Under the pieces are notes generated by a model. That model searched no databases. It saw only the letters and a program-made list of their open reading frames with translations, and was not told where the DNA came from. Positions 4,450-20,028 of a stretch of 64,000 nt of DNA are shown one piece after another (position 1 is the first letter of the stretch; every line of letters starts with the position of its first letter). The translations under genes were made by a program, and so were the position numbers. This stretch comes from Polyangium mundeleinium (GTDB lineage: Bacteria; Myxococcota_A; Polyangia; Polyangiales; Polyangiaceae). The DNA is taken from positions 5,982,501 through 6,046,500 of the forward strand of contig NZ_JAQNDO010000001.1 in assembly GCF_028369105.1 (NCBI RefSeq), in the 5' to 3' direction.

Positions 4450-4613
4450 AACGACCGCTGTAGCGCGCGAAGCGACCGCTGTGACTCGTGAAGCGACCGC
4501 TGTGACTCGTGAAGCGACCGCTGTGACTCGTGAAGCGACCGTTGTAACTCGCAGAGCGACCGCTGTAGCTCGCAGAGCGACCGCTGTAGCTCGCAGAGCG
4601 ACCGCTACCGCGA
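4450..4613. repeat. 21-bp tandem repeat array, about 8 copies
   Basis: About eight head-to-tail copies of a 21-bp unit with core AGCGACCGCTGTGACTCGTG. The first and last copies are degenerate. Three central copies are identical, and the later ones change to the variant ending ...GTAGCTCGCAG, so two sub-families are visible. The array lies between the 3' end of the PxpA-like gene (stop at 4605) and the start of the gene at 3516-4310. It is therefore intergenic apart from a few bases. There are no spacers, so this is not CRISPR. Confidence 0.85.
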
Positions 4614-5312
4614 CAAGAGCCCCTGGCTCTCCAGCGCCGTCCGCACCGCCCCTGCGATCTCCACCGCGAAGGGGCCTTCGCCATGCACGCCGATCGCGTC
4701 GAAGCGGCTCGTCCTCGCGAGCCGCAGCGCGTTCTCCGCTGCGGCTGCGGCGTTCTCGATCCTCGCGCCCGGCTCGCCCTCCGGGATCAGGTTCCCGTCC
4801 GCGTGGTAGCCCCGATCCGCGTACGCCTCCCGCAGATAATCGAGCCCGCCCGTGCGTACGTAGTCGAGCATCGGACCCTCGAACGGGCCGATCACGGGCA
4901 CGTCCATCGACAGCCCTTCGAATGCGCCGTCGAGGATCGCGTCCGCCACGTGCCGGTTCGCCGTCGCCGCGAGGAGGAGCGCGTCCGTTGCCTTCACCGC
5001 GAAGATCCGCGCGCCCTGCCACTCGGCCACGCGCAGCATCGCGGTACACTGATCGCGCACGGCGCTTCGCACGTCCTCCGGCTCCACGTTCGGCGCGATC
5101 GGCCCGCCGTGCGCCGGGAACGAGACGAGCGCGACGATCTTCGCCCACGACTCCTTCGCCTGCTGAATCGCGCGCTTGATCGACCGCTCGTCGACGCCGG
5201 GGCCCCCGCAGGCGATGCTCGCCATCGTGGCGAACTTGTAGAGCTCCCGTGGCTCGTCCTGTCGACGGCCCACGGGGATGTTGAGGCTGACCGCGCGCAT
5301 GAGGAGGACCAT
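4605..5312 (-). CDS. LamB/YcsF (PxpA-like) family protein, N-terminus degenerate
   Basis: Family features are clear in the body of the protein: ASIACGGPGVDERS (compare ANIACGFHAGDP), an FPAHGG segment, EDVRSAVRDQ, AYADRGYHADG followed by IPEGEPGA, and IGVHGEGPFAV near the end. In PxpA (5-oxoprolinase subunit A) these surround the substrate and metal site. Two things differ: the N-terminal LNxDxGE motif reads SLNIPVGRR, and the usual partners PxpB and PxpC are absent nearby. The enzyme may have a changed substrate or lack 5-oxoprolinase activity. Candidate starts are ATGs at 5312 and 5300. Neither has a good Shine-Dalgarno. Confidence 0.75.
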   Translation of the reverse strand: MVLLMRAVSLNIPVGRRQDEPRELYKFATMASIACGGPGVDERSIKRAIQQAKESWAKIVALVSFPAHGGPIAPNVEPEDVRSAVRDQCTAMLRVAEWQGARIFAVKATDALLLAATANRHVADAILDGAFEGLSMDVPVIGPFEGPMLDYVRTGGLDYLREAYADRGYHADGNLIPEGEPGARIENAAAAAENALRLARTSRFDAIGVHGEGPFAVEIAGAVRTALESQGLLSR

Positions 5313-5413
5313 CGTAACGCAGGGCGCCGCCGCCTGGGTAGTCTCATCGCAGGCGTCTCCCGCGAGGCGCACGAGTGCTTGACGCCGCCGGGCCGGCGTG
5401 GTTTCCGCGGTCG

Positions 5414-6415
5414 ATGCAACCGAGCGGCGCCCGCGCCCGTGCCCTCGTCCTCGGCGCCACGGGGCACATCGGTCAAGCGATGGTGCGCGAGCTCCTCGCG
5501 CACGGCTACCACGTCACCGCGGTCACGCGTCGAACGAGCCCCGCGAACCTCGCCGGCCTCGACGTCGATCTCGCCGTCGGCGACGCCGACGCGAAAGGCC
5601 AGATCGACGCGTGGGCCCGCGGCCACGACGTCCTCGTCGACGCCGCGGCGCCCTATCCGATCCACCGGTTCGCCCCGCAATCCTCGGCCGAACGGGATCC
5701 ACTCCGGTATGCCGTGACGCGCACCCGCGCGGTCCTCGACGCCGCCTTCCGCAGCGGCGCGCGCCTCGTGTACATCGGCTCGTTCACCACCTTGCCCCGC
5801 AGCGATACACGCCTCGCCGCGCTCGAAACGAGCGTGCGCAGGCAGAGCCATCCCTACTTCGCCGTCAAGGCGCACATGGAGGGGATGGTCCTCGATGCCG
5901 CGCGCCACGGCCTGCCCGCCGTCCTCGCCAATCCCACGGCCTTCCTCGGGCCCTGGGACGACAAACCCGCGGAGCTCGCGCTCGTCCCGCAGCTCCTCGC
6001 GGGCCTCGTCCCGGCCACCGTGCGGCGGATCGTGAACGTCGTCGATGTCCGCGACGCGGCCGCGGCGATCCGCGGCGCGCTCGAAGCCGAGGCGTTCGGC
6101 GTGCCCCTGCCGATCACGGGCCACGATGTCCCGACCGACGTGCTCGCCGCGCGCATTTGCGAGCTCGCGGGCGTGAGACCACCCTTCTTGCGCGCCTCGG
6201 CCCGGCTCTCCGCCGCGGGGGCGTTCTGGATGGAGGCGGCGCTCTCGCTCGGCGGCCGGCCTTCGCCGCTCCCGTCGCTCGCGCTCCTGCTCGTGCTCGA
6301 CGCGTACGCCATGGGCGCCCCGATCGCCACCATGCGCTTCGGGGAAGGCGTCCGCCCGCTTGACGAAACGTTGCGTGATGCGATTGCGTGGTACCGCTCG
6401 CAGCGGCGCGCCTGA
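5414..6415 (+). CDS. NAD(P)-dependent epimerase/dehydratase-like (extended SDR)
   Basis: The protein has 333 aa. The N-terminal Rossmann motif is GATGHIG, the active-site pair is visible as YFAVK (YxxxK), and a Ser-containing strand (VYIGSFTT) lies in the expected place before it. The C-terminal half resembles NAD-dependent epimerases acting on sugar or small hydroxy-acyl substrates. The substrate cannot be told from sequence. The start at 5414 (MQPSGARARALVLGATG) keeps a short lead-in to the first strand. It is divergent from the PxpA-like gene and about 100 bases ahead of a second SDR, so the two dehydrogenases may share a transcript. Confidence 0.8.
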   Translation: MQPSGARARALVLGATGHIGQAMVRELLAHGYHVTAVTRRTSPANLAGLDVDLAVGDADAKGQIDAWARGHDVLVDAAAPYPIHRFAPQSSAERDPLRYAVTRTRAVLDAAFRSGARLVYIGSFTTLPRSDTRLAALETSVRRQSHPYFAVKAHMEGMVLDAARHGLPAVLANPTAFLGPWDDKPAELALVPQLLAGLVPATVRRIVNVVDVRDAAAAIRGALEAEAFGVPLPITGHDVPTDVLAARICELAGVRPPFLRASARLSAAGAFWMEAALSLGGRPSPLPSLALLLVLDAYAMGAPIATMRFGEGVRPLDETLRDAIAWYRSQRRA

Positions 6416-6522
6416 TCGGCCGCGCGCCGCCGTCCTCTTGTTTCCAAAGCGAGGCGGATGTGCATAGACTCGGGCAAACGCGGTTTTTCCGGGTGGATCC
6501 GCGAACAGAGGAGGTCGTCCCC

Positions 6523-7287
6523 ATGGGTCGAATCGAGGGCAAGGTGGCGCTCGTCACGGGCGCCACGGGCGGGATTGGCAGAGCAACGATCGACAAGTTC
6601 GTACGGGAGGGAGCGCGGGTCTTCGCGTTCGCTCGCCAGGAAGCGCCGCTGCGCGACGCCGTGGCGCACCACGGCGCGTCCGTCGCCATGGCGACCGGCG
6701 ACATCACCGAGGAGGCGGACGTGGCGCGCGCGGTCGCGGCATGCCTCGAGGCATTCGGGCGGCTGGACATCGTCTTCGCCAATGCAGGCGTCGAGGGCGT
6801 GGTCAAGCCGATCACCGACGTCACGGCGGAGGAGCTCGACGAGGTCTATCGGGTGAACGTGCGCGGGACGTTCTTCACCCTGAAGCACAGCGCCCCGCCG
6901 ATGGTGAAGCAGGGCAAGGGCAGCATCATCGTGAACTCGTCGGTCCTCGGGCTCTCGGGGATGGCCGGGCTCAGCGCGTATGCGATGAGCAAGCACGCGG
7001 TGACCGGCCTCATGCGCTCGGCCGCGCTCGAGCTCTCGCCCCTCGGCGTGCGCGTGAACTCGATTCACCCCGCCGCGGTCGACAACCGCATGATGCGCTC
7101 GATCGAGCGATTGGCGGCCCCGGACGCGCCGAACTCGGTGAAGGACAAGTTCACGAGCATGATCCCCCTCGGTCGTTATGGGACGAACGAGGAGATCGCC
7201 GACCTCGTGCTTTTCCTCGGCAGCGACGAATCCTCGTTCTGCAGCGGCTCCACGTTCACGGCCGACGGCGCGTTCGGCGCCCTTTGA
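6523..7287 (+). CDS. Classical short-chain dehydrogenase/reductase
   Basis: The protein has 254 aa, the usual length for a classical SDR. Visible motifs are TGATGGIG (cofactor binding), NAGVEG (NAG), IIVNSSV (catalytic Ser region), YAMSK (YxxxK catalytic pair), and a C-terminal FLGSDESSFCSGSTFTADG, typical of the FabG/3-oxoacyl reductase-like group. It probably reduces or oxidises a keto/hydroxy group with NAD(P)H. The start at 6523 is set by a good Shine-Dalgarno (AGAGGAGGT at 6507-6515). The gene converges on the ADC-like gene. Confidence 0.9.
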   Translation: MGRIEGKVALVTGATGGIGRATIDKFVREGARVFAFARQEAPLRDAVAHHGASVAMATGDITEEADVARAVAACLEAFGRLDIVFANAGVEGVVKPITDVTAEELDEVYRVNVRGTFFTLKHSAPPMVKQGKGSIIVNSSVLGLSGMAGLSAYAMSKHAVTGLMRSAALELSPLGVRVNSIHPAAVDNRMMRSIERLAAPDAPNSVKDKFTSMIPLGRYGTNEEIADLVLFLGSDESSFCSGSTFTADGAFGAL

Positions 7288-7309
7288 GCACGGGCGCGCC
7301 CCGCGCTCG

Positions 7310-10165
7310 TCAGGGCCCCTCGAAATCGGCCTTTTGCCAGGCCTTCGCCAGGATCAGGATCACCCCCTCGAGCGCTTTCGCGTAATCCTCGGGCGTCGCC
7401 CCGGCGGAGGGCGAGGGGTCGGGTCCGAAGAACGCGACCTTCCCATCCGGCGCGTACGCCTTCTGCATGACGTCGACCGTGGCCGCCGCCGTCACGAGCT
7501 TCTGGAGCGCCTCTTCCACGTACGGGCGGAGCCGGTTCTCCTTGGAGATACGCCGATCCACTTCGGCGGTGAGGGAGGCGAGCTCCTCGGCGCGCGCCGC
7601 CGCTTCGGTCTTCCCGGCCTCGGCGCGAATCGCGTCGAGGGTCCGGACAATCTCGGCCTTGCCGCGTTCCCAGCGCGTCGGCCCTTGGTCCTCCCATTCT
7701 CCGCTCAGGACCGTCTCGACGACCATCTGCGGATCGATCGTCGCGAGCACCTGCGCGCGGTTCGGCTGCGACAGCGATCCCGCCATCGAGATGGCGATGT
7801 CCCGCGCGCGCGGCCCGATTTGCCGCGGCACCCCGGCGTCCACGTCGGCGAGCATTTCCATGCCGAGGCTCGGCTGTTCGAGGAGGGACGCGAGAAGTTT
7901 TTCCTGGGGCGGGATGACCCACTGCGTGCAACCTGCGCGCATCGCGAGGTTTCGGCCGAGGTGCTGCCGCATCGCGGCGCGGGCCCAGAAGGGCCGCACG
8001 GGCTCGATGACGTACACCTCGGCCGGGCCGCTCACGTCCACGGCCTTCCAGGAGAGCCCCAGCGTCTTCACGATGGGCTGGCTCGGATATTCGTGCAGCC
8101 GGATCTCCAGGGGCCGCTCGAACTCGTCGAGCTCGTAGACCTCTTCGAGCACACGCTCGATGAGGACCACGCTCTGGTAGCAGGCGGCGAGCGGATCCTG
8201 GGCGTCGCGGAATTGCTTCAACGTGAGGATGTCGAGCGAAGCCCGCATCACGAGGGGCCCGAGCGCGAGGGCGCGCGCCATTTCGAGCTCCACGCGCATC
8301 TCGTTCGCCGTCGACACCTTCCGCTTGTGTTCCTGCAGCAGGAGGTTCGGGAGGTTCTCGTTCAGGAGGAACGAGCTCGTCGGGGCGGGCGGCGTCGTGG
8401 AGCCCTGGATGATCTCGATGACCGGTCGCTGCTCGGCCTTCTGGCCATACCCGGCCGCCGGGAGCACCTCGGCCACGACGGTGAGCAGGGGCTGCGGCGT
8501 CTTCGGCGAGGGCCCGGCGTGGTCCATCCATTCATCGGGCGGGCTCGCGAGGGTGGCGGGCAAGGTGGGGATGCCGCTCACCTCGGAGCGCGAGATCGCG
8601 GCCGTGGCGCGATTCGCGTAGGAGAACACCGGGATCATCGCCCCGCCGCGCAGCTCGCCGTTGAAATACCACAAGACCGGCAGGAGGATCTCGATGTCGC
8701 GGTCCGTCCAGACGCCCACGTTGTTCGTCGCGGATCCGACCTCGTCGACGCTCGACACCATCATGTACACGTGCGTGCCCCAGGCGTCGATTTGATACCC
8801 GGTGCCCTGGAGCATGACGTTGAGGTAGGCGTCGCAGAAGGCCTGGAGTTTGGACCTGTCGGCGAGCATCGGGAGGACGCGGATCGTCGCGTCCGGGAAA
8901 TAAAAGGGCCCCGTGATGGGGTCGACCGGGACGCCTCGCGCGGTATTGAAGAGCGGGATGGGCTCCGGGTCCGGCGCCGTGGGCGACGCGGGCACCCAGC
9001 CTTCGCTCTTCCAGCCGCCCGAGAAGGGCGTGCGCCACGCGAGCACCTCGCCCCAGGGGTATTTCACGTCGAAATCGAGCCAGAACGGGAACACGGGCTC
9101 GAGCACGTCCACCGGCTCGCCGTGCGCGCCGAGCGTGGACTCGCCCGAGACCTTGAGCCCGAGCGTGTCGACGAGGGGGAAATCCGAATACCCGTGAATG
9201 TTGATCCGATATCCGCCCGTGATGTCGCCGAGCAGGAGGTGGCTGTTGCCGAAGAAGCCGACCTGGTTCATCCCGTCGATGAGGAGCTTCGTCGTGATGA
9301 ACCCCTGGTAATCGGCGAGGTGCGGCTGCGTGGCGCTCGGGAACTGCTTCAGGTTGAGCGCGGTCCAATAGGGGTTCGAGGTGTAGAGCCCGACGATGAG
9401 CTGCGCGAGCTGCTGGGCCATTTTCACGGCGTTCGCGGGCGTCGCGCCGGGCTGCTTGTGCAGGATCCCCATTCCGTAAAGGATGTCGAGGCAGCTCGAC
9501 ATCCAGCGGCTCGCGCTGTTCACCACGTTCTGCGCCGCAGCCCAGGGGTAGAACGGTTGCGTGAGGTCCGGGGGGCACTCGAACGGCGTGAGCGGCGGCG
9601 CCTGCACGAACTCGAGGAGCGTGCGCTCTTCGAGCTTCTCGCCCGCATACGTCCGCGGAAAGAGCTGCGCGGCCACCTTGGCGAGGAGCCGCGGGGCCAT
9701 CGGATCGTCGACCCACCCGCTCAGGGTCGGCACGAGATACCCGGGCGATTTCGGCCACCCGTAGACCTCACGGCCCGTCGTCATCGAGAGGGGGTTGTTC
9801 ACGAAGATGTACGGCGTGAGGTAGACCCAGTCCTTGAAGACGAGCTCCGACCCTTGCTTCTCGTACCACGCGAGCGGGATCGTGAAATTGACCTCGTGCT
9901 GCGCGATCCAGCCGAGGTTCGCGGCGTCGATCGACATCTTGCCGTAATGCACGAGCTGCAGGTAGACGTACGGCAGGAACACCCGGAACTGGCCGACCTT
10001 GTCCGGGGCGATGTTGTTGATGTACTGGTCGACGAACCGCTGCACCCGCTCCATGTCGGCGAGGAGCGGGAAGACCCGCATCGTCACCCCCTTGAAAGAA
10101 AAGGGAGGGATGAGCTGCATCGCGGGGTACAATCCCCGCGCGATATTGAAGAGCGGTTGCTGCAT
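7310..10165 (-). CDS. Tandem acetoacetate-decarboxylase-fold protein (two modules)
   Basis: The protein has 951 aa, against about 250 for a single acetoacetate decarboxylase (ADC). Two related modules, about residues 5-375 and 404-770, each begin with a similar LFN.ARG...RV.P.LAD pattern. A helical C-terminal extension (about 800-951) follows. Module 1 has REVYGWPKSP, which aligns with the ADC active-site peptide ELSAYPKKL, so Lys139 is the expected Schiff-base lysine. The second Lys of the pair is Ser. In module 2 the same site reads SEVSGIPTLP, with Thr534 for the lysine, so it should be catalytically dead. It is the last gene of a four-gene operon behind a polyprenyl synthase (41-base gap). 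Its function is probably decarboxylation of, or binding to, a beta-keto acid. A Shine-Dalgarno (CGGAGAC) precedes the ATG. Confidence 0.75.
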   Translation of the reverse strand: MQQPLFNIARGLYPAMQLIPPFSFKGVTMRVFPLLADMERVQRFVDQYINNIAPDKVGQFRVFLPYVYLQLVHYGKMSIDAANLGWIAQHEVNFTIPLAWYEKQGSELVFKDWVYLTPYIFVNNPLSMTTGREVYGWPKSPGYLVPTLSGWVDDPMAPRLLAKVAAQLFPRTYAGEKLEERTLLEFVQAPPLTPFECPPDLTQPFYPWAAAQNVVNSASRWMSSCLDILYGMGILHKQPGATPANAVKMAQQLAQLIVGLYTSNPYWTALNLKQFPSATQPHLADYQGFITTKLLIDGMNQVGFFGNSHLLLGDITGGYRINIHGYSDFPLVDTLGLKVSGESTLGAHGEPVDVLEPVFPFWLDFDVKYPWGEVLAWRTPFSGGWKSEGWVPASPTAPDPEPIPLFNTARGVPVDPITGPFYFPDATIRVLPMLADRSKLQAFCDAYLNVMLQGTGYQIDAWGTHVYMMVSSVDEVGSATNNVGVWTDRDIEILLPVLWYFNGELRGGAMIPVFSYANRATAAISRSEVSGIPTLPATLASPPDEWMDHAGPSPKTPQPLLTVVAEVLPAAGYGQKAEQRPVIEIIQGSTTPPAPTSSFLLNENLPNLLLQEHKRKVSTANEMRVELEMARALALGPLVMRASLDILTLKQFRDAQDPLAACYQSVVLIERVLEEVYELDEFERPLEIRLHEYPSQPIVKTLGLSWKAVDVSGPAEVYVIEPVRPFWARAAMRQHLGRNLAMRAGCTQWVIPPQEKLLASLLEQPSLGMEMLADVDAGVPRQIGPRARDIAISMAGSLSQPNRAQVLATIDPQMVVETVLSGEWEDQGPTRWERGKAEIVRTLDAIRAEAGKTEAAARAEELASLTAEVDRRISKENRLRPYVEEALQKLVTAAATVDVMQKAYAPDGKVAFFGPDPSPSAGATPEDYAKALEGVILILAKAWQKADFEGP

Positions 10166-10206
10166 GGTTCGTCTCCGAGCCGTTGTCGTCTTGCCGCGCC
10201 CGCCCG

Positions 10207-11232
10207 TCAAGCCCGCTCGATGACCCAGCGGGGGAGGGCCTCGATGAATTGTTTGTCCTTGGAGTCCGGCAGCGCGCCGAACAGGAGGGAAAACTCGTGC
10301 GAGGCCGCGCCCGCGAGCCCTTGCGCGACCTCACGCGCGTACTCGATGCACCCGTAATGATCCATCCGCTCGCGCACCCAGGTGATCTCCTCGCGGGTGC
10401 GCTCGGCCCGCGGCAGCGCGAGCAGGCGGCCGAGGCGCGCGCGTTCCTCCTCCGTCCCCGCCTCGAAGAGGCGGATCAGCATCATCGTCCGTTTGCCCTC
10501 GTGGATGTCGCCGCCGAGCTCCTTGCCGTAATCGTTCTCGTCGCCGGTCAGGTTCAAGAGATCGTCCTGGATCTGGAAGGCCGCGCCGAGGAAAAAGCCG
10601 AACCGGATGAACGAGTCGGGATCGACCGAGTCGAACGTGGCGATCATCGCGCCGACGCGGATCGGGTGGATCATCCCGAGCCAGCACGTCTTTTTGAGGA
10701 CCATTTCGAGGTAATCGGATTCGCGCACGCGCGTCGAATTCTCGTGGCGCCAGCCGAGCTCCATGGCCTGCCCCTCGGCCGACTCCGAGGCCATCCGTTC
10801 GGTTTCTTCGAGGATACGCAGCGCGAGGCGCGGGCCGAGGGTCCGGAAGTTCACGAGCAGCGGGCGGAGGCCCAGGAGCCCGAGCATGTCGCCGACGTTG
10901 ATGGCGATCGGGACGCCGTGCGTCGCGTGCAGCGTGGGTTTGCCGCGGCGGCGCTCGCTCTCGTCCTCGATGTCGTCGTGGACGAGCATGGCGTTGTGGA
11001 GCAGCTCGATGGACGCGGCCGTGTCGAGGGCGTCCTCGGGCGGGCAGCCGAAGGCGCGGGCCGTGGCAATGCAGAGGCTCGGCCGGAAGCCGCGGCCGCC
11101 GCGCTGCGGATAATCCGCCACGAGGTCGTAGAGCCAGCGCCGCGGCTCGCGCGCCGGGATGTATTGAAAGAGCCGCGAGCGCGCGGCCGCCCCGTATTCT
11201 TGCAAAACGGCGGGGACGATCTCGGCGAGCAT
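10207..11232 (-). CDS. Polyprenyl (probably geranylgeranyl-class) diphosphate synthase
   Basis: The protein has 341 aa, normal for a trans-isoprenyl diphosphate synthase. The first Asp-rich motif is HDDIED (residues 86-90) followed by RRGKPT. GQAMELGW and KKT lie in the expected places. The second motif is FQIQDDLLNLTGDE (223-227), where DDxxN replaces the usual DDxxD. Ala at the fifth position before the first motif is compatible with C20 or longer products rather than FPP. The enzyme condenses IPP with an allylic diphosphate. It is translated just after the Pro-rich protein gene (17-base gap) and before the ADC-like gene. The start at 11232 (MLAEIVPAV) matches the family; longer frames upstream are Arg-rich shadow. 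Confidence 0.9.
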   Translation of the reverse strand: MLAEIVPAVLQEYGAAARSRLFQYIPAREPRRWLYDLVADYPQRGGRGFRPSLCIATARAFGCPPEDALDTAASIELLHNAMLVHDDIEDESERRRGKPTLHATHGVPIAINVGDMLGLLGLRPLLVNFRTLGPRLALRILEETERMASESAEGQAMELGWRHENSTRVRESDYLEMVLKKTCWLGMIHPIRVGAMIATFDSVDPDSFIRFGFFLGAAFQIQDDLLNLTGDENDYGKELGGDIHEGKRTMMLIRLFEAGTEEERARLGRLLALPRAERTREEITWVRERMDHYGCIEYAREVAQGLAGAASHEFSLLFGALPDSKDKQFIEALPRWVIERA

Positions 11233-11249
11233 GGAATCCTCGGCCCTCG

Positions 11250-12254
11250 TCAGGCCTTCAAGGTGACAGTCACGCGACCGACGGGGGAGCGGCTCGCCTC
11301 GTCGATCACGACGCCGCTGTAGGAGCCGGCGGGCTGCTCGGGCGGGATTTGCAGCGTGATCCCGATGGCGCCGTCGTTCGACAATCGAACCCCTTCGAGC
11401 GGCGGCGCGCCCTCCACGTCGAGCGCGCCGAGCGCCGGGGCGACGAGGTGTTTTCCGGCGGCGCCGGGCCCGAGGTGGAGGCGCACCTCCGCGGCGCGGC
11501 CGAGGTGCACGTCGAAGCGCAATGCAATGCCCGGCTCTCGCCCCGAAGGCTCCAGCGGCGGGCGCGGGGGAGGCGCGGGCGCTGCGGGACCCGGCCCGCG
11601 GCTGGCCCACGGCGGGGCGCGGGGCCCTTCGAACGGCGGCGGTTCGTAGCGCTCGCGTGGAGGCGGCGGCGGCGTATAGGCGCCATGCGTCGGCGGCTCG
11701 TATCGCTCGCGCGTCGGCGGCTCGTATCGGCCGTACGGGGGCGGGGGCTCGGGCCTCCCATACGGCGGCGGCGGCTCGTATCGGTTTTGCGGCGTATAGG
11801 CCGCGCGCGGATCATAACCGCCGTAGGGCTGCCCATACGGCGATTGCGGCGCGCGTCCCTGGGGCGCGAAGCCCATGGGCCCGGCGAAATCGAACATCAT
11901 GCCAACCGCGTCCGACCAGTACCGCATCGCCCTGCGCGCCATGTCGCCATAGGACAGCGGCCCGGCCTCGGTCCACGATCCGCCGAACCCACGCGCCGCG
12001 TCCCTGCCGCGTCGCATGTATTCGTCGTACACGCGATACGCCGTGGACACGCCCGTTTCGAGCGAGGGCCGGCCGTTCGGCGCCGAATAGCCATTCGGCC
12101 CCGGGATGGGCTCGGGGCGGCGCTCCGGCGGGGAGCGGAACATCAAGGGCACGTCCCGAATGGGCTGCGTGCGCGCGGGAGGATCACGCCGCAGCCGGTC
12201 CTGCACGGGCGCGTCGTGGGGGGGAGGGCGATCATGCGGATTCCATTGGCTCAT
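11250..12254 (-). CDS. Pro/Tyr-rich repeat protein of the isoprenoid operon
   Basis: The protein has 334 aa in three regions. Residues 1-70 are Pro/Arg-rich and disordered. A short helical block (about 72-130) with AYRVYDEYMRRG and RRAMRYWSDAVGMMFD looks amphipathic. Residues 140-230 are low complexity with repeated RYEPP/PPPYGR units. A C-terminal beta-sandwich-like domain (about 245-334) ends PAGSYSGVVIDEA...VGRVTVTL. I do not recognise a named family. The amphipathic block is faintly phasin-like, which would fit a surface-coating or scaffold role, but that is a guess. ATG overlaps the stop of the oxidoreductase gene by 4 bases (ATGA), so the two are translationally coupled. Confidence 0.7.
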   Translation of the reverse strand: MSQWNPHDRPPPHDAPVQDRLRRDPPARTQPIRDVPLMFRSPPERRPEPIPGPNGYSAPNGRPSLETGVSTAYRVYDEYMRRGRDAARGFGGSWTEAGPLSYGDMARRAMRYWSDAVGMMFDFAGPMGFAPQGRAPQSPYGQPYGGYDPRAAYTPQNRYEPPPPYGRPEPPPPYGRYEPPTRERYEPPTHGAYTPPPPPRERYEPPPFEGPRAPPWASRGPGPAAPAPPPRPPLEPSGREPGIALRFDVHLGRAAEVRLHLGPGAAGKHLVAPALGALDVEGAPPLEGVRLSNDGAIGITLQIPPEQPAGSYSGVVIDEASRSPVGRVTVTLKA

Positions 12255-14419
12255 GGGTGATCGTATCCGATGATTTCGTCGAGGGGAGGGTGATGGCTGA
12301 TGGCGTGCGCGGCGAGCAGCCCCGACATCACGGCCGACTCGACGCAGCCCGTATCGAGCCCGGTGCGCGTCCAGTCGCCAGCGATGGTCAGGTTGTCGAA
12401 GGTCATGTCGAGCGGCGAAATGCGGTACTTGATGCTCCCGGGCATCGAGAGGACGTACCGATCCGAAGGATTCACGTTGGCCGTCCAGAACTGCGAGTCG
12501 AACCGCGCAGCGCCCGTGCTCCGCGGCGCGCCGGATCGCGCCTCCTCGGGGTCGACGAGCAGATCCCAGCGAAATTCGCCCGGCCTGCGGACGGCCGCGG
12601 GCCAGAGCCAGCCCACGTCCCAATCGAGGAAACGCACGATGTTGTCGCGCACGTAGGCGCGCGCGATGCCCGGCAGATCCGGGCCCTCGGGCGCGACGTC
12701 CGGCAAGACGCTGCAAAAATACGCGATGGACCGGACCGGCTCCTCGAAGCTCTCCACGCGCTCGAGGTGCGTCATGTCCGCCCACGTGTCGAACGGCTCG
12801 ACGAACCCCGACAGGTTCACCGGCGCGGGCCGGTTCCAGCCGAGCTCCCGCGCGTCCGCCCGGAGCCACACCTGGAAGGCCTGCGTCGCGACGCTCTTCA
12901 CGTTCTGCACCATCGCGCGCCACGACGGCGCCCGCTCGACGAGCTCGGGGGCGACGTGCGGAATGGCGCCGATGCTCGCGCCGAGCACGACGAAATCGAA
13001 GTCGTCGCCCACGCGGACCGTCTTTTCACCCGCGCGGCGTGTCTCCCAGTGCGATTCGAACGCCCACCCCTCGCGCTCCAGGCGCTCGCCGTCCACGAGC
13101 TGCCGGGGGTCGGCCTTCGAGGGCCAGCAGGGCAGCCCCTTTATGTCGACGAGCGGCGCGTACTCGCCGCCGCTCACGATCTCGGCCTGCACGTCGAATT
13201 CGAGCGCCGTGACGTGCGCCGGCCCGGCCTCGGGTGGCGAGAGCTTTACGTTGCGCAGGCGGTGGAAAAACTCGAAATGCGCGCCCCGCTTTTTCAAGAC
13301 CTCGTACATCGGGGCGAACACGATGTCGCCCATGCCGGCCTGCATGCGGAAAAACAGCGATCCGCGGTACGTGAAGAACATCCGGAGCGCGCCACGAAGC
13401 GCGACACCGGCCGCGAGGGCCGGGCGCCGTATGTCGCCCTCCTCGTACGCGAACGCGAGGTCGTAGAGCGCGCGGACGAACCCGGAGTCGAGCGAGTGCT
13501 CGGACGCGCCATTTCGGCGGAGCCAATCCGACCATTCGTACTCGTTGATCGCGTCGAACCCGTCCGGGTGGAACGCGAGCCCGTACCGGAGCGAGCCCCT
13601 CACGATGCAGAGGATGAGCTCGACGACCTCCCACACGCGCCGCAGGCCCATGTCCCCGCCGACGATCGCGTCGAGCTCCCGCCGCACGACCGCGCCGATC
13701 GCGTCGAGGAGCCGCAGGAGCGTGGCCTGCACGCTGTCCCGCGGCGACAGGGCGAAGAGCGATTGCAACGCCGTGCGCAGGAGGTCCACGGCCTCGAACA
13801 CCGCCGCCGTCGTGGCGAGCTGCCCGTACCGCAGGATCCGCTCGATCATCCCGAGCACGTCGCCCGGCGACGCCCCGGCGCGGCGCGCGCCCTCGGAGGC
13901 AGGCCAGCCGGGCGCGGCGCGCCCCGCGTTCGCCGAACGCAAGAGCTCGGGGACGAGCGCGAGCGCCTTCTCCAGGTATCCCGCGACGCTGAAGGGGTTG
14001 CGCTCCTCCAGCGGATCGCCGGGCCTGCCCTTGCCGGGCGGGAAATGGGCGACCCAGGGCTCCCAGGCGCCGCTCGGCAGGCGATCGGTCACGCCGACGA
14101 CGGGCGCGGGCGCGAACGCGTCCTCGAACGTCGCGATGGGGCAAGCGCGCGGATTGCGCCCGAGCTCGCCATAACACGAGCGCATGAGGCGGAACGCATT
14201 CTCGTAAAACCCCATCCAGAGGTGCAGCCCGTGCTCCTCGATGCGGCCCGACGGCCCGCGGCCCGAGGCGCCTTTGCCGCCGAGCCGGAAGCCCATCTGG
14301 TAGATCGTGACGTCGTAGAGGCCGCGATGCTCGGGCCGCGTCAGCTCGAAGGCGGCCGCCATCGATGCGCATCCGCCTCCGATGATTGCCACCCGAATGG
14401 GGCGTCCGGGAACGTGCAT
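12251..14419 (-). CDS. FAD-dependent oxidoreductase, carotenoid-desaturase/amine-oxidase-like
   Basis: The protein has 722 aa. The N-terminal dinucleotide-binding motif is VAIIGGGCASMAAAFEL (last Gly replaced by Ser), followed by the strand and loop YDVTIYQMGFRLGGKGASGR seen in phytoene desaturase/amine oxidase enzymes. The C-terminal FAD-contact segment is TIAGDWTRTGLDTGCVESAV. The central 450 residues are longer than in CrtI-type desaturases. It probably oxidises or desaturates a hydrophobic substrate. It heads the operon with a Pro-rich protein, a polyprenyl synthase and an ADC-fold protein, pointing to a prenyl-derived product. A TTG at 14434 is an alternative start, and neither start has a strong Shine-Dalgarno. 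Confidence 0.85.
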   Translation of the reverse strand: MHVPGRPIRVAIIGGGCASMAAAFELTRPEHRGLYDVTIYQMGFRLGGKGASGRGPSGRIEEHGLHLWMGFYENAFRLMRSCYGELGRNPRACPIATFEDAFAPAPVVGVTDRLPSGAWEPWVAHFPPGKGRPGDPLEERNPFSVAGYLEKALALVPELLRSANAGRAAPGWPASEGARRAGASPGDVLGMIERILRYGQLATTAAVFEAVDLLRTALQSLFALSPRDSVQATLLRLLDAIGAVVRRELDAIVGGDMGLRRVWEVVELILCIVRGSLRYGLAFHPDGFDAINEYEWSDWLRRNGASEHSLDSGFVRALYDLAFAYEEGDIRRPALAAGVALRGALRMFFTYRGSLFFRMQAGMGDIVFAPMYEVLKKRGAHFEFFHRLRNVKLSPPEAGPAHVTALEFDVQAEIVSGGEYAPLVDIKGLPCWPSKADPRQLVDGERLEREGWAFESHWETRRAGEKTVRVGDDFDFVVLGASIGAIPHVAPELVERAPSWRAMVQNVKSVATQAFQVWLRADARELGWNRPAPVNLSGFVEPFDTWADMTHLERVESFEEPVRSIAYFCSVLPDVAPEGPDLPGIARAYVRDNIVRFLDWDVGWLWPAAVRRPGEFRWDLLVDPEEARSGAPRSTGAARFDSQFWTANVNPSDRYVLSMPGSIKYRISPLDMTFDNLTIAGDWTRTGLDTGCVESAVMSGLLAAHAISHHPPLDEIIGYDHP

Positions 14420-14532: not shown

Positions 14533-17500
14533 CTAGCGTGAGCTTATTGTTTTTCGTGAGTCGGCGCCGCCCGAGGATGCGGGCCCGGCCGTGCCGCCCG
14601 GCTGCTTCTGGCGTCTGGGCAGCGTTATGACGAACTCGGTGTACTCTCCCTGCGCGGTGTGCACCTGCATCGACCCGCGGTGCCCCTGGACCACGGTGTC
14701 GTAGCAGATCGACAGCCCGAGCCCGGTGCCCTCGCCGGGCGGTTTCGTCGTGAAGAAGGGATTGAAGACTTTTCCGAGGATCTCGTCCTGGATGCCCGTC
14801 CCGTTGTCCCGGATGCGCACCTCGACCAGGCTGCCGTCGCCGCGTGTACGGATCCCGAGCGTGGGCGCGTAGCCGGGGCCGGCCGTTCGTTGCTTCTCCT
14901 GCATTGCGTAGCAGGCGTTGTTGATCACGTTGATGAATACGCGGACCATGTCCTGGACTGCGATCTCCACCAGGCCGATCGAGGCGTCGCAGTCGTTCTC
15001 GATCTTCAGGTGGAACCCCGGCAGCTTGCCGCGATAGCCGTGGTAGGCGAGATCGAGCCCCTCGGCGAGGGCGGCGTTCAGATCGGCCGGCTCGTGTTTT
15101 CCGCCTCCCGCGCGCGAATGCAGGAGCATCCCGTTCACGATGTGGTTCGCCCGCACGCCGTGCTCGCCGATCTTCGCGACGTTTTGGCCCAGGAGGGAGA
15201 GCGTCTCCTGGATCTCCTCGATCGTGTCCGGCGTCGCCGCGCCGTCGAGCTGCGTGAGCCCCTCGTCGAGCTCCGTGACGAGCCCGGAGGAGAGCTCGGC
15301 GAAGTTGATGATGAAGTTCAGCGGGTTCTTCATCTCGTGCGCGATGCCGGCCGTCAGCGCGCCGAGGCTCGCGAGCTTCTCCTGCATCACGAGCTGCTGC
15401 TGCGTGTCGCGGAGCTGTTCGAGCGTCGATCCGAGCTCGGCGTTCTTCACGGAGAGCTCCCGCGTCCGCTCGTCGACCTTCTGCTCGAGCGTGCGGCTGT
15501 ACTCTTCGAGCAGATCGTTCGAGGCGCGCAGGCGCGTGGAGGTCTTTTCGAGGTCGGCGAAGAGCCGCGCGTTGTGGAGCGAGAGCGCGGCCTGCGAGAG
15601 CAGGAGGCGCAGGACATCGAGCCTCGACGCGGTGAACGCGCCCGCGATGAGGTTGTTTTCGAGGTAGATGATGGCCGTCACGGCGCCGCGATCGAGGAGC
15701 GGCGCGCAGAGCACGGATTTCGGTCGCGCCGATGCGATGTACGGATCGGCGGTGAAGCGGCCTTCACGCGCCGCGTCACGGAGCACGACGCTCTCGCGCG
15801 TGCGGCTCACGTACTTCACGATCGCGGCCGAGAGGCGCTTCTCCTGGTCGAGCGGCGTCGCGTCGTGCGTGATGACGTCGACCTGATCGATCGTGTGCTC
15901 GACCGCGACGACGTGCTGACCCTCGCGCTCCAGGATCAAAAAACCTCGCTGCGCGCCTGCGTTCTCCAGGAGGATCCGCATGAGCGTGGAGCTCAGCCGT
16001 TCGAGGACGATCTCGCCGGAGATCGCGCGGGCGGCCTTCATCACGGTCGCGAGATCGATCGACTCGCCGCCGCTCCCCGTCGTGGACTCGACGCCGAGGT
16101 TCACCGTGGCGGGACCTTGGGCCGTGCTCGGCGGCGGGGGGGCCGCCGAGCCGAGCAGCTCCGCGTGCTCTTTGTTCAGCGCCGCGACCTTGGCCGACGC
16201 GCCCCAGCGCACGTAGCCGTAGCGCGCCTCGCCCATGTACGTCGCGGCGATCTTCGTGCGCCCGAGCTCCAGGTAATGCTCCGCCGCGAGCTCGTAGGCG
16301 AGCGCCTCCTCTTGCACGAACCCGTTCTTCGCGGCGCCTTTGATCGCTCGCTCGAAGAGGTCCATCGCCTCGGCCGCGCGGCCGAGCAGCCACGCGCGCA
16401 CCGCTTCGACGAGCTCGTACTTGTGCAGGTAGTTCGCCGGCGCCTGATCGGCCCAGCGCTTCACGAGCGCCTGGTTCTCGTCGACCTGGGCGAGCAGCGC
16501 GGCGCGCTTCTCGGGCCTCGCCACGCGCGCGGCCCGCAGGAGCGCGAGCGAGTGGTAGAGCGGGAGCTGCCCCGCCGTCATGTGCCCCGTGAGCGCGTTC
16601 AGGTAGGGCTTCGCCGCGTTGGCGGCCTCGATCGCGAGCACCGTGTCCCCGAAGAGATACGCGAGCATGCACTTCGAGATGTGCAGGAGGCCGAGCGCGT
16701 TCTCGCTCTTCACCTCGAGGAAGTGTCGGATCGCCGTCCGCTCGTCGAGGCTCTCGCCCACGAGCAGGATCGGGTCCTTCGACTTGCCCATGAGGTTCAG
16801 CACGGTCTGCCGGACGATGCGCGCGAAGGAGAGGCCGTGCTCCTGCTTGACGCGCGCCAGCACGTCGATGTGCTGGGCCACGTCCGCGACCACGACGTCG
16901 AGCGGCTCGCCCGCGTAAAAGATCGCCGCGGCGTGGATGGCCGCCGAGTACCCGACGAACTCGTGATCCCCGACGTCGAGGCCCGTCGTGACGGCCTCGC
17001 GCAGGAAGTCGAAGGAGACACGCAGGTGCTCCTTCCAGATCTTGATGAAGCTGCCGACGAGCGTGTAGACCTTCGCCCTGAGGGCCCGCGCGTCGAAGCG
17101 ATTCATGAGGCGGATCGCGAGGTCGCCGTAGACGTTGCCGGCGTCCGGATCCCCGAAGGCGCTGCGCACGACGCCGTACTCGGCGAAGGCGAACGGCGAG
17201 AGCGGCGAGTGCCCGTGCTCGACGCAGAGCTTGACCATCTCGCAGACGACGGGCACGAAGAGCATGGGCTTGCCGATGTAGACCGGGGCCGTGAGCGTCA
17301 CGAGCAGCCGGAGCCGCGCGGCCTGGGTCGGATCCGCCATGTCGGGCAGATACGCGAGCGACTCCACGGGCCTGTCGCCGATGAGCGCCGCCGTCTCGGC
17401 GTACCTCGCGAGCATCCCGTTCGTGTCGATGTCCTCGGGCAGCGGCGCGCCGAGCAGCTCGAGCGCCTGGAGGCCCACGCGGATCGTCGCGTCGAACTCG

Positions 17501-20028
17501 ATACGCGCGGTGTGGAAGAGCATCCGGAGCTCGTGGATCCGCACCTTGTCGAGCGCCGTCCGCGCGTGCTCCAGGGCGCTCTGCGAGAGGCGCTGCGCGC
17601 GCTCGAAATCGCCGTTCAGGTACGCGGCGCCCGTCGCCTCGATGTAGAGCTCGAACGCGAGCTCGTACCGCTCCAAAAAACTCCCCGGCGGCAGGAGGCG
17701 GATGCCGGCGTCGAGGTAATGCAGCGCGGGTTCGTACGCGGCCGAAGCTTTGGCCTTCTTCCCGGCGATGAGGTTCAGCCGCGCGACCTCGGCGCGCTCC
17801 TCGGGGCTCTCGATGCGCTCGCTGCCTTGATCGAGCTGGCTGATGACGTCGAAGAGGCGTTCGTCGAGCTTCTCGGGCGGTGTGCGTTCGAGCAGGAGGC
17901 GGCCGATCTGCAGGTGGATCTCGGCGCGCCGGTGCTCCGCGATGAGCGAGTAGGCGGCCTGCTGCACGCGGTCGTGCAGGAACTTGTAGTGCGCGTCGGG
18001 GATCGCGTCCGTGCTCTCCAGCACTGCGGGCTCGGCGAGCTGGTAGGCGTCGCCGATGGGCACGACGAGCCCCTCGCGCAGCGCGTCCCAGAGCCCCGTT
18101 GCCGTCTCGATCAGCGGGTGATCGTGCACCTTCGCGAGCGTCGCGAGTTCGAAGCGCGCGCCGATGCAGGCCGCGAGCTCGAGCACGCGCTGGGCCCGCT
18201 CGGGGAGCCGCTGGATCTTCGCCGCCATGAGCTCGACCACGTTGTCGGTCATGTCGCGGCGCCGGATCTCCCCGAGATCCCACCGCCACTGCGCGGCCGA
18301 CGGATCGAAGCGGAGCAGCCGCTCGTCGGCGAGCGAGCGCAGGAACTGGCCGAGGAAGAAGGGGTTTCCGCCCGTCTTTTCGAGCGCGATCTCCGCGAGC
18401 GAGAGCGTGCCCTCGCCGCTGCGCACCGCGTCGTCGACGAGCTGCTCGACGTGCTCGATCGAGAGCGGCGAGAGCGAGAGCTCGGTCACGGGCGCGCCGG
18501 CCTTCTCCAGCGCCTCCAGCGTCAAACGGAGCGGATGCCCGGAGCCGACCTCGTTGTCGCGGTACGCGCCGATCACGAGCAGGTGCTTCATGTCGGGATC
18601 GGTCACGAGCAGGTGCAGGAGCTTGAGGGACGGCGCGTCGGCCCACTGCAGATCGTCGAGGAAGATGACGAGCGGATGCCCGCCGGCCGTCAGGGCGCGG
18701 ACGAAGCTCTGGAACACGAAATGGAAGCGGTTCTGCGCTTCGTTCGCGGGCAGCGGCGAGATCGGCGGCTGGGCGCCGACGATGAGCTCGACCTCGGGGA
18801 GGACGTCGAGGATCACCTGTCCGTTCGAACCAAGCGCGGCCGAGAGCCGCTTCTGCCAGAGCGCGAGGTGCCCCTCGCTCTCGGTGAGGAACTGCCGGAC
18901 GAGGTCGCGGAAGGCCTGGATCAGCGAGCTGTAGGGGACGTCGCGGTTGAGCTGATCGAACTTGCCAGAGACGAAGTAGCCGCGCTTGGCGAGGATGGGC
19001 TCGTGCACCTCGTTGACGAGGGCGCTCTTGCCGACGCCCGAGTAGCCGGCGACGAGGACCATCTCGGCCTTGCCCTCGCTCACGCGGTCGAACGTGGAGA
19101 GCAGCTTTCCGATCTCCGCCTCGCGGCCGTAGAGCTTCTGCGGGATCTGGAGTTTGTCCGGTACGTCCCGGCGACCGAGGGGGAATTTCTCGATCGGGCG
19201 GCCCTCTTCGAGCGCCGCGACGCACGCTTCGAGATCGGCCGCGAGCCCGAAGGCCGTCTGGTATCGATCCTCCGGGGACTTCGCGAGGAGCTTGCGCGTG
19301 ATGTCGGAGACGGCGGCGGGGATCTCCGGGGCGCGCTCGTGCGGGGGCACGGGCTCGCGCGCGATGTGCTGGTGCACGAGCTCCACGACGTCGGAGGACT
19401 CGAACGGCACGTGGCCCGTGAGCAGCTCGTAGAACGTGATGCCGAGCGAATAGAGGTCCGCGCGGTGATCGACGGCGCGGTTCGTCCGGCCGGTCTGCTC
19501 CGGGGACACGTAACGCAGCGTGCCTTCGAGCACGTTGAGATCCCGCATCGGCGCGCTCTCGCGCGAGAGCGCCGTCGCGATGCCGAAGTCGATGAGCTTG
19601 ATCTCGCGGGTCTCGGGGTGGATGACGATGTTGGACGGGTTCACGTCCTTGTGGATGATGTTGCGCCCGTGGACCTCGCCGAGGATGCGGGCGAGCTCGG
19701 CCATGATCGGCAAGAGCTCCGCGATCGGCAGCCGCGCGCGGACCCGGAACGCGCTGAGCGGATCGGCCCCGAAATCCTCGAGCACGATCGCGAGGCGGCC
19801 GTCGTGGCGCAGGAGCTCGTGCGTGCGAATGACGCCGTCGAGCTTGAGGCCGCTCGTGATCTCGTATTCGCGGCGGAATCGCGCGAGCTCCTCGGGCCTC
19901 GGCCGATCCAGACGCAGCACCTTCAGCACCACGGGCAGCCCGTCGTGCGTGCGGCGTCCCCGGTACACGAGCGTCCGCGTGGTCTCGTGCAGCTTCGTCG
20001 TGATCTCGTAGCCGGGAAAGAGACTCAT
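14533..20028 (-). CDS. Ser/Thr kinase-AAA ATPase-GAF-histidine kinase hybrid
   Basis: This cytoplasmic signalling protein has 1831 aa and no membrane segment. Residues 7-270 are a Hanks kinase: VLK at 36, HKDVNPSN (Asp128), DFG (147), SPEQTGR. At about 300 starts an AAA/STAND ATPase with Walker A GYSGVGKS (328-335) and Walker B VIFLDDLQWAD. A long helical TPR-like region follows, to about 1300, then a GAF domain (about 1338-1490), a coiled coil, a HisKA box AHEMKNPLNF (His about 1564) and a HATPase with N box NVINNACYAM, DNGTGI and GTGLGLS. All catalytic boxes are intact. No receiver domain is present, so the phosphate must pass to a separate regulator. This architecture is known from cyanobacteria and myxobacteria. 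The gene ends 114 bases ahead of the isoprenoid operon on the same strand. Confidence 0.93.
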   Translation of the reverse strand: MSLFPGYEITTKLHETTRTLVYRGRRTHDGLPVVLKVLRLDRPRPEELARFRREYEITSGLKLDGVIRTHELLRHDGRLAIVLEDFGADPLSAFRVRARLPIAELLPIMAELARILGEVHGRNIIHKDVNPSNIVIHPETREIKLIDFGIATALSRESAPMRDLNVLEGTLRYVSPEQTGRTNRAVDHRADLYSLGITFYELLTGHVPFESSDVVELVHQHIAREPVPPHERAPEIPAAVSDITRKLLAKSPEDRYQTAFGLAADLEACVAALEEGRPIEKFPLGRRDVPDKLQIPQKLYGREAEIGKLLSTFDRVSEGKAEMVLVAGYSGVGKSALVNEVHEPILAKRGYFVSGKFDQLNRDVPYSSLIQAFRDLVRQFLTESEGHLALWQKRLSAALGSNGQVILDVLPEVELIVGAQPPISPLPANEAQNRFHFVFQSFVRALTAGGHPLVIFLDDLQWADAPSLKLLHLLVTDPDMKHLLVIGAYRDNEVGSGHPLRLTLEALEKAGAPVTELSLSPLSIEHVEQLVDDAVRSGEGTLSLAEIALEKTGGNPFFLGQFLRSLADERLLRFDPSAAQWRWDLGEIRRRDMTDNVVELMAAKIQRLPERAQRVLELAACIGARFELATLAKVHDHPLIETATGLWDALREGLVVPIGDAYQLAEPAVLESTDAIPDAHYKFLHDRVQQAAYSLIAEHRRAEIHLQIGRLLLERTPPEKLDERLFDVISQLDQGSERIESPEERAEVARLNLIAGKKAKASAAYEPALHYLDAGIRLLPPGSFLERYELAFELYIEATGAAYLNGDFERAQRLSQSALEHARTALDKVRIHELRMLFHTARIEFDATIRVGLQALELLGAPLPEDIDTNGMLARYAETAALIGDRPVESLAYLPDMADPTQAARLRLLVTLTAPVYIGKPMLFVPVVCEMVKLCVEHGHSPLSPFAFAEYGVVRSAFGDPDAGNVYGDLAIRLMNRFDARALRAKVYTLVGSFIKIWKEHLRVSFDFLREAVTTGLDVGDHEFVGYSAAIHAAAIFYAGEPLDVVVADVAQHIDVLARVKQEHGLSFARIVRQTVLNLMGKSKDPILLVGESLDERTAIRHFLEVKSENALGLLHISKCMLAYLFGDTVLAIEAANAAKPYLNALTGHMTAGQLPLYHSLALLRAARVARPEKRAALLAQVDENQALVKRWADQAPANYLHKYELVEAVRAWLLGRAAEAMDLFERAIKGAAKNGFVQEEALAYELAAEHYLELGRTKIAATYMGEARYGYVRWGASAKVAALNKEHAELLGSAAPPPPSTAQGPATVNLGVESTTGSGGESIDLATVMKAARAISGEIVLERLSSTLMRILLENAGAQRGFLILEREGQHVVAVEHTIDQVDVITHDATPLDQEKRLSAAIVKYVSRTRESVVLRDAAREGRFTADPYIASARPKSVLCAPLLDRGAVTAIIYLENNLIAGAFTASRLDVLRLLLSQAALSLHNARLFADLEKTSTRLRASNDLLEEYSRTLEQKVDERTRELSVKNAELGSTLEQLRDTQQQLVMQEKLASLGALTAGIAHEMKNPLNFIINFAELSSGLVTELDEGLTQLDGAATPDTIEEIQETLSLLGQNVAKIGEHGVRANHIVNGMLLHSRAGGGKHEPADLNAALAEGLDLAYHGYRGKLPGFHLKIENDCDASIGLVEIAVQDMVRVFINVINNACYAMQEKQRTAGPGYAPTLGIRTRGDGSLVEVRIRDNGTGIQDEILGKVFNPFFTTKPPGEGTGLGLSICYDTVVQGHRGSMQVHTAQGEYTEFVITLPRRQKQPGGTAGPASSGGADSRKTISSR

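What the first reader, a model, noticed from the sequence alone, without database searches (positions are those of the whole stretch)
7310..14419. Four-gene coupled operon joining a desaturase-like FAD enzyme, a polyprenyl synthase and a double ADC-fold protein
Seen: four minus-strand genes with a 4-base overlap, a 17-base gap and a 41-base gap. The product set (FAD oxidoreductase with a 450-residue insert, Pro/Tyr-rich protein, trans-prenyl synthase, tandem acetoacetate-decarboxylase-fold protein) is not a carotenoid, hopanoid or quinone pathway I know; no phytoene synthase, cyclase or methyltransferase is present. Inference: it makes or modifies a prenyl-derived metabolite, with the ADC protein decarboxylating or binding a keto acid and the Pro-rich protein acting as scaffold.
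Basis: partly seen in the sequence, partly recalled or inferred. Interest (0 to 1): 0.75.

Follow-up and report, generated by a model that had tools for sequence, protein, structure and literature searches.

The report
Widespread unassigned polyprenyl-lipid gene cassette
Four neighbouring genes in a Polyangium soil bacterium turn out to be a gene cassette shared, in the same order, by dozens of unrelated bacteria, and it most likely builds and oxidatively edits a long isoprenoid lipid that nobody appears to have identified yet.

Summary
Four minus-strand genes (A FAD enzyme 12251-14419, B 11250-12254, C polyprenyl synthase 10207-11232, D tandem ADC-fold protein 7310-10165) lie at the stated coordinates with the stated spacings. 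A scan keyed on A alone returned 67 close A loci; 64 also hold B and C, 59 colinear with median gaps of 18 and 10 bases. They come from Myxococcota, Gemmatimonadota, Acidobacteriota, Pseudomonadota, Cyanobacteriota, Nitrospirota and Binatota. D is in 40, and some other clusters carry single-domain ADC proteins instead. A and ADC are also linked or fused in 21 of 23 A loci without B-C, including a fused paralogue in this genome. Corrections: the Pro/Tyr-rich stretch is a Polyangium peculiarity; B's conserved parts are an N-terminal Arg/Pro motif, two amphipathic helices and an Ig-like domain. Only D's first ADC domain keeps the Schiff-base lysine. The "450-residue insert" is about 250-290 extra residues. 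The neighbourhood extends to an epimerase-like gene (5414-6415). Best explanation: a patchily distributed cassette that makes and edits a linear, probably C25-or-longer, polyprenoid. Substrate, product and reaction order are inferred. I found no published description in the library searched.

The parts
12251..14419 (-). Gene A: FAD-dependent desaturase/HpnE-like oxidoreductase, 722 aa
   Evidence: PF01593 41.8 bits, PF13450 34.2 bits; HpnE model 59.6 bits against cut-off 283; 51-sequence alignment with invariant FAD motifs
11250..12254 (-). Gene B: conserved unnamed protein, 334 aa: N-terminal Arg/Pro motif, two amphipathic helices (64-91, 102-127), Pro/Tyr-rich linker in Polyangium, C-terminal Ig-like beta domain (245-334)
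   Evidence: no Pfam/NCBIfam match; 42-sequence alignment; AlphaFold2 model with beta domain pLDDT over 90; hydrophobic moments 0.74 and 0.61
12156..12197 (-). B residues 20-33 RLRRDPPARTQPIR, the conserved N-terminal motif RxxRxxxxRxxPxR
   Evidence: 50 of 66 B sequences match the strict pattern; several misses have R-to-K changes or a wrongly placed start
10207..11232 (-). Gene C: trans-polyprenyl diphosphate synthase, 341 aa
   Evidence: PF00348 195.9 bits; closest PDB sequence Thermus GGPP synthase 1wmw
10963..10977 (-). C first Asp-rich motif DDIED, preceded at -5 by Ala
   Evidence: Ala at -5 in 56 of 59 C sequences with the motif
10552..10566 (-). C second Asp-rich motif DDLLN (last Asp is Asn)
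   Evidence: DDxLN or DDxMN in 58 of 59
7310..10165 (-). Gene D: two ADC-fold domains (about 22-378 and 405-744) plus helical C-terminal part, 951 aa
   Evidence: AlphaFold2 pTM 0.81; domain 2 matches solved ADC structures at Z 17-21; ADC chains are the top Foldseek hits, E about 1e-8
9749..9751 (-). D Lys139, Schiff-base lysine position of ADC domain 1 (GWPK)
   Evidence: invariant in 23 D sequences; aligns with Lys122 of 4zbo/6eej
8564..8566 (-). D Thr534, the matching position in ADC domain 2 (GIPT): lysine lost
   Evidence: alignment A7: no Lys there in the D sequences shown
5414..6415 (+). Epimerase-like NAD(P) enzyme, probable accessory gene
   Evidence: same family near the core in 22 of 84 loci; HpnA-like, 131 bits against cut-off 368
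6523..7287 (+). SDR oxidoreductase, possible accessory gene
   Evidence: adh_short_C2 184 bits; conserved here in the Polyangium loci, family in 6 of 84 loci
14533..20028 (-). Ser/Thr kinase - AAA_16 (STAND-type) - GAF - histidine kinase signalling protein, probable regulator
   Evidence: Pfam; same family in 8 loci, and a cyclase-AAA-TPR protein is found near the core in 49 of 84

Best explanation
A patchily distributed biosynthetic cassette that makes and oxidatively edits a linear polyprenoid lipid. SHOWN: A, B and C (usually with D or another ADC-fold protein) are a conserved operon across at least seven phyla; C carries both catalytic motifs of trans-polyprenyl synthases; A has intact FAD motifs; only D's first ADC domain keeps the Schiff-base lysine. 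INFERRED: (1) C makes an all-trans prenyl diphosphate longer than C20, since the small Ala at -5 leaves the chain pocket open. (2) A, an FAD enzyme of the carotene-desaturase/HpnE superfamily, introduces, removes or moves double bonds along that chain. (3) The epimerase-like/SDR genes (here) or the saccharopine-dehydrogenase-like gene (other clusters) turn a hydroxyl into a carbonyl or back. (4) D domain 1 forms a Schiff base with that carbonyl through Lys139 and shifts a double bond, dehydrates or decarboxylates; domain 2 is structural. (5) B binds the lipid or membrane surface with its amphipathic helices and docks partners through its Arg/Pro motif and Ig-like domain. A kinase- or cyclase-linked STAND-type protein controls the cluster. 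The precedent for steps 2-4 is the ADC-family isomerase CLA-DC acting with an FAD hydratase and an SDR on lipid chains.
For: Synteny: 64 of 67 close A loci have B and C, 59 colinear, median gaps 18 and 10 bases; loci were selected by A only. A and C distances co-vary, r = 0.74, 0 of 2000 permutations as high. All B-C carriers fall in one clade of A (SH-aLRT 100) spread over several phyla, including cultured isolates. C: PF00348 with conserved motifs, Ala at -5 in 56 of 59; a smaller residue there lengthens products (PMC7261888, PMC4244643). A-ADC link: fused or nearby in 21 of 23 A loci without B-C, fused paralogue in this genome. Lysine: Lys139 invariant in D and invariant at the matching GxxK site in each group of single-domain ADC partners. 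Isoprenoid link: CrtC-lipocalin/polyprenyl-synthase fusion beside A-ADC in another Polyangium. Independence from C30/C40 synthases: none detected in 8 of 48 carriers. ADC isomerase precedent: PMC11719350.
Against: No metabolite, enzyme assay or expression data. A-ADC pairs are commonly found without C, so their ancestral substrate need not be a prenyl chain. D is absent from part of the clusters and, in eight searched carriers, not detected anywhere in the genome. D is below the Pfam ADC cut-off. Several carriers lacking SQS_PSY are incomplete MAGs. Chain length from one residue is a rule of thumb. B's role rests on helix amphipathicity and a fold with no PDB match.
Confidence: 0.55

Rival explanations
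1. A and D act on a fatty-acyl or polyketide lipid, as a desaturase/isomerase plus enone isomerase, and C only supplies a prenyl anchor or a second building block joined to it.
For: A-ADC pairs and fusions occur widely without any C; the best functional precedent for an FAD enzyme plus SDR plus ADC-fold isomerase is linoleate metabolism (PMC11719350); the window epimerase-like gene also resembles OleD, 41.5 bits.
Against: Within the A clade that holds this cluster, C is nearly always present and co-evolves with A; no acyl ligase, ketosynthase or carrier protein is among the recurrent neighbour families that I identified.
Confidence: 0.22
2. The cassette is a variant of hopanoid, squalene or carotenoid synthesis: A is a hydroxysqualene dehydroxylase or carotene desaturase acting on C30/C40 compounds made elsewhere in the genome, and C supplies FPP/GGPP.
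For: Best NCBIfam matches of A are HpnE, zeta-carotene and phytoene desaturases; the epimerase-like gene resembles HpnA; this genome has two SQS_PSY genes far from the window and 40 of 48 carriers have at least one.
Against: A is far below every equivalog cut-off (59.6 against 283 for HpnE); 8 of 48 carriers show no SQS_PSY gene; C has the small Ala at -5 expected of longer products, not of an FPP synthase; no known hopanoid or carotenoid cluster contains B or D (own knowledge).
Confidence: 0.13
3. D and the other ADC-fold proteins are non-catalytic lipid-binding or sensory subunits that feed the STAND-type signalling protein, so the cluster makes and senses a signal.
For: D's second domain has lost the lysine; large kinase/cyclase-AAA proteins recur beside the cluster.
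Against: Lys is invariant in D domain 1 and in each group of single-domain partners aligned, which would not be needed for binding alone.
Confidence: 0.1

Closest known systems
Carotenoid desaturases / hydroxysqualene dehydroxylase HpnE (PF01593 superfamily)
   Same: FAD-binding N-terminus and C-terminal GDWTxxGxxxGCVExAVMSG region recognisably homologous to A
   Different: A is about 250-290 residues longer, far below the equivalog cut-offs, and sits with B and D instead of PSY/SQS genes
Acetoacetate decarboxylase-like superfamily (ADC, MppR, Sbi_00515 aldolase-dehydratase, Swit_4259, CLA-DC)
   Same: Fold (Z 17-21) and Schiff-base lysine position in D domain 1
   Different: D is a tandem with one lysine-less domain and a helical extension; domain sequence identity to solved members is only about 9-14%
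Trans-GGPP/polyprenyl synthases (Thermus GGPPS 1wmw, IdsA)
   Same: C aligns over its whole length with DDxxD and a DDVLN-type second motif
   Different: Ala at -5 suggests longer products; in the loci examined C is clustered with A and B
Lactobacillus plantarum linoleate saturation system (CLA-HY, CLA-DH, CLA-DC, CLA-ER; PMC11719350)
   Same: FAD enzyme + SDR dehydrogenase + ADC-family isomerase working on one lipid chain: works like
   Different: Different FAD family, no prenyl synthase, acts on fatty acids; not a member
Family 2B encapsulin terpenoid operons (PMC8346489)
   Same: C scores 167 bits to the encapsulin-cargo polyprenyl transferase model
   Different: No encapsulin gene was seen in the cluster, no long disordered N-terminus on C, and 11 of 18 carriers have no family-2 encapsulin

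Membership tests
Polyprenyl diphosphate synthases (PF00348) | Pfam match over cut-off | tested here: met
   195.9 bits against 27
Polyprenyl diphosphate synthases (PF00348) | First and second Asp-rich motifs | tested here: met
   DDIED and DDLLN, conserved in the family; the second ends in Asn, as DDVLN does in Thermus GGPPS 1wmw
Polyprenyl diphosphate synthases (PF00348) | Product chain length | not testable with these tools
   Only inferred from Ala at -5
Hydroxysqualene dehydroxylase HpnE (TIGR03467) | Score over the equivalog cut-off | tested here: not met
   59.6 against 283 bits
Carotene desaturases (TIGR02731/02732) | Score over the equivalog cut-off | tested here: not met
   31.3 and 43.7 against 569 and 622 bits
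Hopanoid/carotenoid gene clusters | Head-to-head synthase (SQS_PSY) in the cluster | tested here: not met
   Not among the recurrent neighbour families identified; in the window genome the two copies lie at 219271 and 9161765, far from the window, and 8 of 48 carriers show none
ADC-like superfamily | ADC fold | tested here: met
   D residues about 405-744 match 3c8w, 3bgt, 4zbo, 6eej and others at Z 17-21; domain 1 has the same order of elements
ADC-like superfamily | Schiff-base lysine | tested here: met
   Lys139 in domain 1 invariant in 23 sequences; absent from domain 2 (Thr534)
ADC-like superfamily | Pfam PF06314 over gathering score | tested here: not met
   D 23.2 against 29.8; some single-domain partners pass (L064 protein 40.4)
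Family 2 encapsulin cargo polyprenyl transferase (NF041169) | Score over cut-off, encapsulin gene in the operon, disordered N-terminus | tested here: not met
   166.8 against 450 bits; no encapsulin seen in the neighbourhood; 11 of 18 carriers lack one
Phasins / lipid-granule proteins (for B) | Match to a phasin family model | tested here: not met
   No Pfam match for B from three genomes; amphipathic helices only

The most novel reading that the evidence does not exclude
The cassette makes a class of long polyprenoid that has not been described: its own dedicated C25-or-longer prenyl synthase, an oversized FAD enzyme that edits double bonds, a half-dead tandem ADC protein that does Schiff-base chemistry on an isoprenoid ketone, and a new family of lipid-surface docking proteins (B) that holds them together, shared by soil, marine and photosynthetic bacteria of at least seven phyla.
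Probability: 0.4. Interest if true: 0.8.

Novelty: new variant of a known kind. Interest (0 to 1): 0.62.

Why it matters
A gene cluster kept intact across at least seven bacterial phyla must make something worth keeping, yet the only names available for its parts are generic ('FAD-dependent oxidoreductase', 'hypothetical protein', 'polyprenyl synthetase'). It offers a defined, cloneable set of three to six genes for finding a missing bacterial lipid. It would also extend ADC-fold chemistry to isoprenoids, and it exposes a new conserved protein family (B) with a short Arg/Pro motif of unknown purpose. Several carriers are cultured isolates (Polyangium, Archangium, Enhygromyxa, Minicystis, Sulfitobacter, Rhodopila, Methylotetracoccus, Synechococcus), so the question can be tested directly.

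Tried and rejected
Encapsulin compartment: suggested by the NF041169 match of C and by a family 1 encapsulin beside a C homologue on a Ruegeria replicon. Rejected for this cassette: family-2 encapsulins are not co-distributed with it, and the Ruegeria FAD enzyme is not an A homologue by BLAST at 1e-5. The small Ruegeria protein next to C matched the end of the B profile at only 9.4 bits, too weak to claim. Hopanoid or carotenoid pathway: failed equivalog cut-offs, and SQS_PSY is dispensable. Pro/Tyr-rich scaffold: the tract is a Polyangium peculiarity. Fold of B: AlphaFold2 gives a confident beta domain, but Foldseek over the PDB returned nothing at E 0.001; the domain was not folded alone, so a known fold is not excluded. 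The MCC-beta hit of the F26 ADC-like profile is put down to its glycine-rich insert. Literature: several searches gave no description of the cluster; the library lacks most subscription journals.

Full report
What is there. A starts at 14419 and ends at 12251; B starts inside A's stop (ATGA) and ends at 11250; C runs 11232-10207; D runs 10165-7310. Protein A is 97% identical to that of Polyangium fumosum and 95% to two other Polyangium strains, whose loci have the same gene order. A belongs to the PF01593 FAD superfamily, C is a clear polyprenyl synthase, D has a sub-threshold acetoacetate-decarboxylase (ADC) match, and B has no match in Pfam or NCBIfam.

Is it a unit? A search of the order with D found one further full cluster (G009: D 37%, C 66%, A 60% identity, with B between). 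A search of 379 genomes of the phylum with A found 62 with a homologue at E 1e-40 or better, of which a small group is 51-60% identical, and the neighbourhoods of most of that group hold B and C. A scan of 84,980 species genomes with an alignment of A alone gave 78 loci. In these, 67 A genes belong to the close subfamily; 65 have B, 64 have B and C, 59 are colinear A-B-C with median gaps of 18 and 10 bases, 40 have D, and 28 have D directly after C. The exceptions lie partly at contig ends. Because loci were fetched by A only, B and C are not there by construction. Pairwise distances of A and C correlate (r = 0.74, 0 of 2000 permutations).

Distribution. The tree of A puts all B-C carriers on one side of a branch with SH-aLRT support 100, with 11 A-only homologues on the other. 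Inside, Polyangium groups with Gemmatimonadota, Acidobacteriota and Enhygromyxa rather than with the Minicystis/Archangium/Pyxidicoccus group, and phyla are mixed throughout. In the genus, two of the six genomes searched lack a close A. This patchiness fits horizontal transfer. MAG binning errors cannot be excluded for single records, but cultured isolates are spread over the tree.

Neighbours. Clustering the proteins of 84 loci (five of them fetched twice) showed recurrent companions: a guanylate-cyclase/AAA_16/TPR protein in 49 loci, a saccharopine-dehydrogenase-like NADP enzyme in 31, an epimerase-like enzyme in 22 (window 5414-6415), single-domain ADC proteins, and kinase-type regulators (window 14533-20028 is a kinase-AAA-GAF-histidine kinase). 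Rarer companions include a methyltransferase right after A (three loci; one tested). So the functional neighbourhood in the window probably reaches from 5414 to 14419 and may include the regulator.

A and ADC. In 21 of 23 A loci without B-C, an ADC-fold protein is fused to A or lies within 10 kb. In this genome a second A gene at about 1.233 Mb is fused to ADC. In clusters with B-C but without D, some carry diverged ADC-like proteins: two such families align to ADC proteins by profile comparison (probability 97-98%), and the lysine of the GxxK site is invariant within each aligned group. ADC-fold proteins are therefore the oldest partner of A, while B and C were added in one clade. D is not essential everywhere: 8 of the 20 carriers searched have no match to the D profile.

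D. AlphaFold2 (pTM 0.81) gives two repeats and a helical tail. Solved ADC structures are the top Foldseek hits and align to residues about 405-744 at Z 17-21. Lys139 of domain 1 is invariant in 23 sequences and aligns with Lys122 of the Streptomyces aldolase-dehydratase. Domain 2 has Thr at that place, and no lysine there in relatives. One active and one structural domain is the simplest reading; that Lys139 forms a Schiff base is inference from the family.

C. Both Asp-rich motifs are present; the second reads DDxLN in nearly all homologues, as in Thermus GGPP synthase. The fifth residue before the first motif is Ala in 56 of 59. Replacing the residue there by a smaller one lengthened the products of cyanobacterial CrtE, and mutation of the same position lengthened those of Sulfolobus GGPP synthase (PMC7261888, PMC4244643), so a product longer than C20 is expected, not shown.

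B. A 42-sequence alignment and a model show what is conserved: an N-terminal RxxRxxxxRxxPxR motif (50 of 66 by a strict pattern), two amphipathic helices, and a C-terminal Ig-like domain with pLDDT over 90. The Pro/Tyr-rich linker is expanded in Polyangium. B occurs once in this genome.

Substrate. No phytoene or squalene synthase was seen in the cluster, and 8 of 48 carriers have none detectable, although several of these are MAGs. In another Polyangium an A-ADC locus holds a 751-residue protein in which a CrtC-like lipocalin region (Lipocalin_9 33.6 bits, over cut-off; CrtC 17.4, below) is fused to a polyprenyl synthase. CrtC hydrates carotenoid ends and is followed there by an FAD desaturase (own knowledge), a second hint that A-type enzymes edit prenyl chains.

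Mechanism. C builds the chain, A edits double bonds, the NAD(P) enzymes interconvert alcohol and ketone, D domain 1 acts on the ketone through Lys139, and B localises them. The linoleate system of Lactobacillus plantarum, where an ADC-family protein isomerises an enone after an FAD hydratase and an SDR (PMC11719350), is the closest working precedent; it is an analogy, not a membership. Every step after 'C makes a prenyl diphosphate' is inferred.

Verdict. I call it a new variant of a known kind (isoprenoid gene cluster), because each enzyme superfamily is known while the combination, the B family and the half-inactive tandem ADC protein are not described in anything I could search.

Noticed in passing
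G000 contig 1, 1232735-1235248 (locus L026, 10180-13209): Paralogue of A fused to an ADC domain in one 1009-residue protein in the same genome, without B or C.
   Followed up: partly
L155, 6694-8949 (minus) and L072, 12304-14559: 751-residue protein with a lipocalin/CrtC-like region fused to a polyprenyl synthase, beside an A-ADC fusion and three further ADC-like proteins, in two Polyangium genomes.
   Followed up: partly
L186 (Ruegeria sp. AD91A plasmid), 4848-13017: A C homologue (47%) sits with a family 1 encapsulin shell gene, a DUF3237 protein, another FAD oxidoreductase and a cyclase-AAA regulator: a possible encapsulated isoprenoid pathway.
   Followed up: partly
L105, L091, L092, L094, L115, L122, L129, L142 upstream or downstream of the core: Saccharopine-dehydrogenase-type clusters often carry a second pair of unnamed proteins, a helical one with a B-like C-terminus and a 365-472 residue one; no Pfam match over cut-off for those tested.
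   Followed up: partly
L077, 2038-8361: Two tandem A paralogues followed by two Rieske oxygenase genes, with a single-domain ADC gene upstream.
   Followed up: no
L102, L125, L131 next to A (family F29): A methyltransferase-family gene of about 260-290 residues lies in three clusters, directly after A in two of them (the L102 copy matches methyltransferase families), suggesting a methylated product there.
   Followed up: partly
window 4481-4600: Short tandem repeat visible as VTREATA-like repeats in overlapping frames just before the end of a LamB/YcsF family gene (4605-5312).
   Followed up: no
G000 contig 1, 2454136-2456399: Two adjacent family 2 (SrpI-like) encapsulin genes in this genome, unlinked to the cassette.
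   Followed up: no
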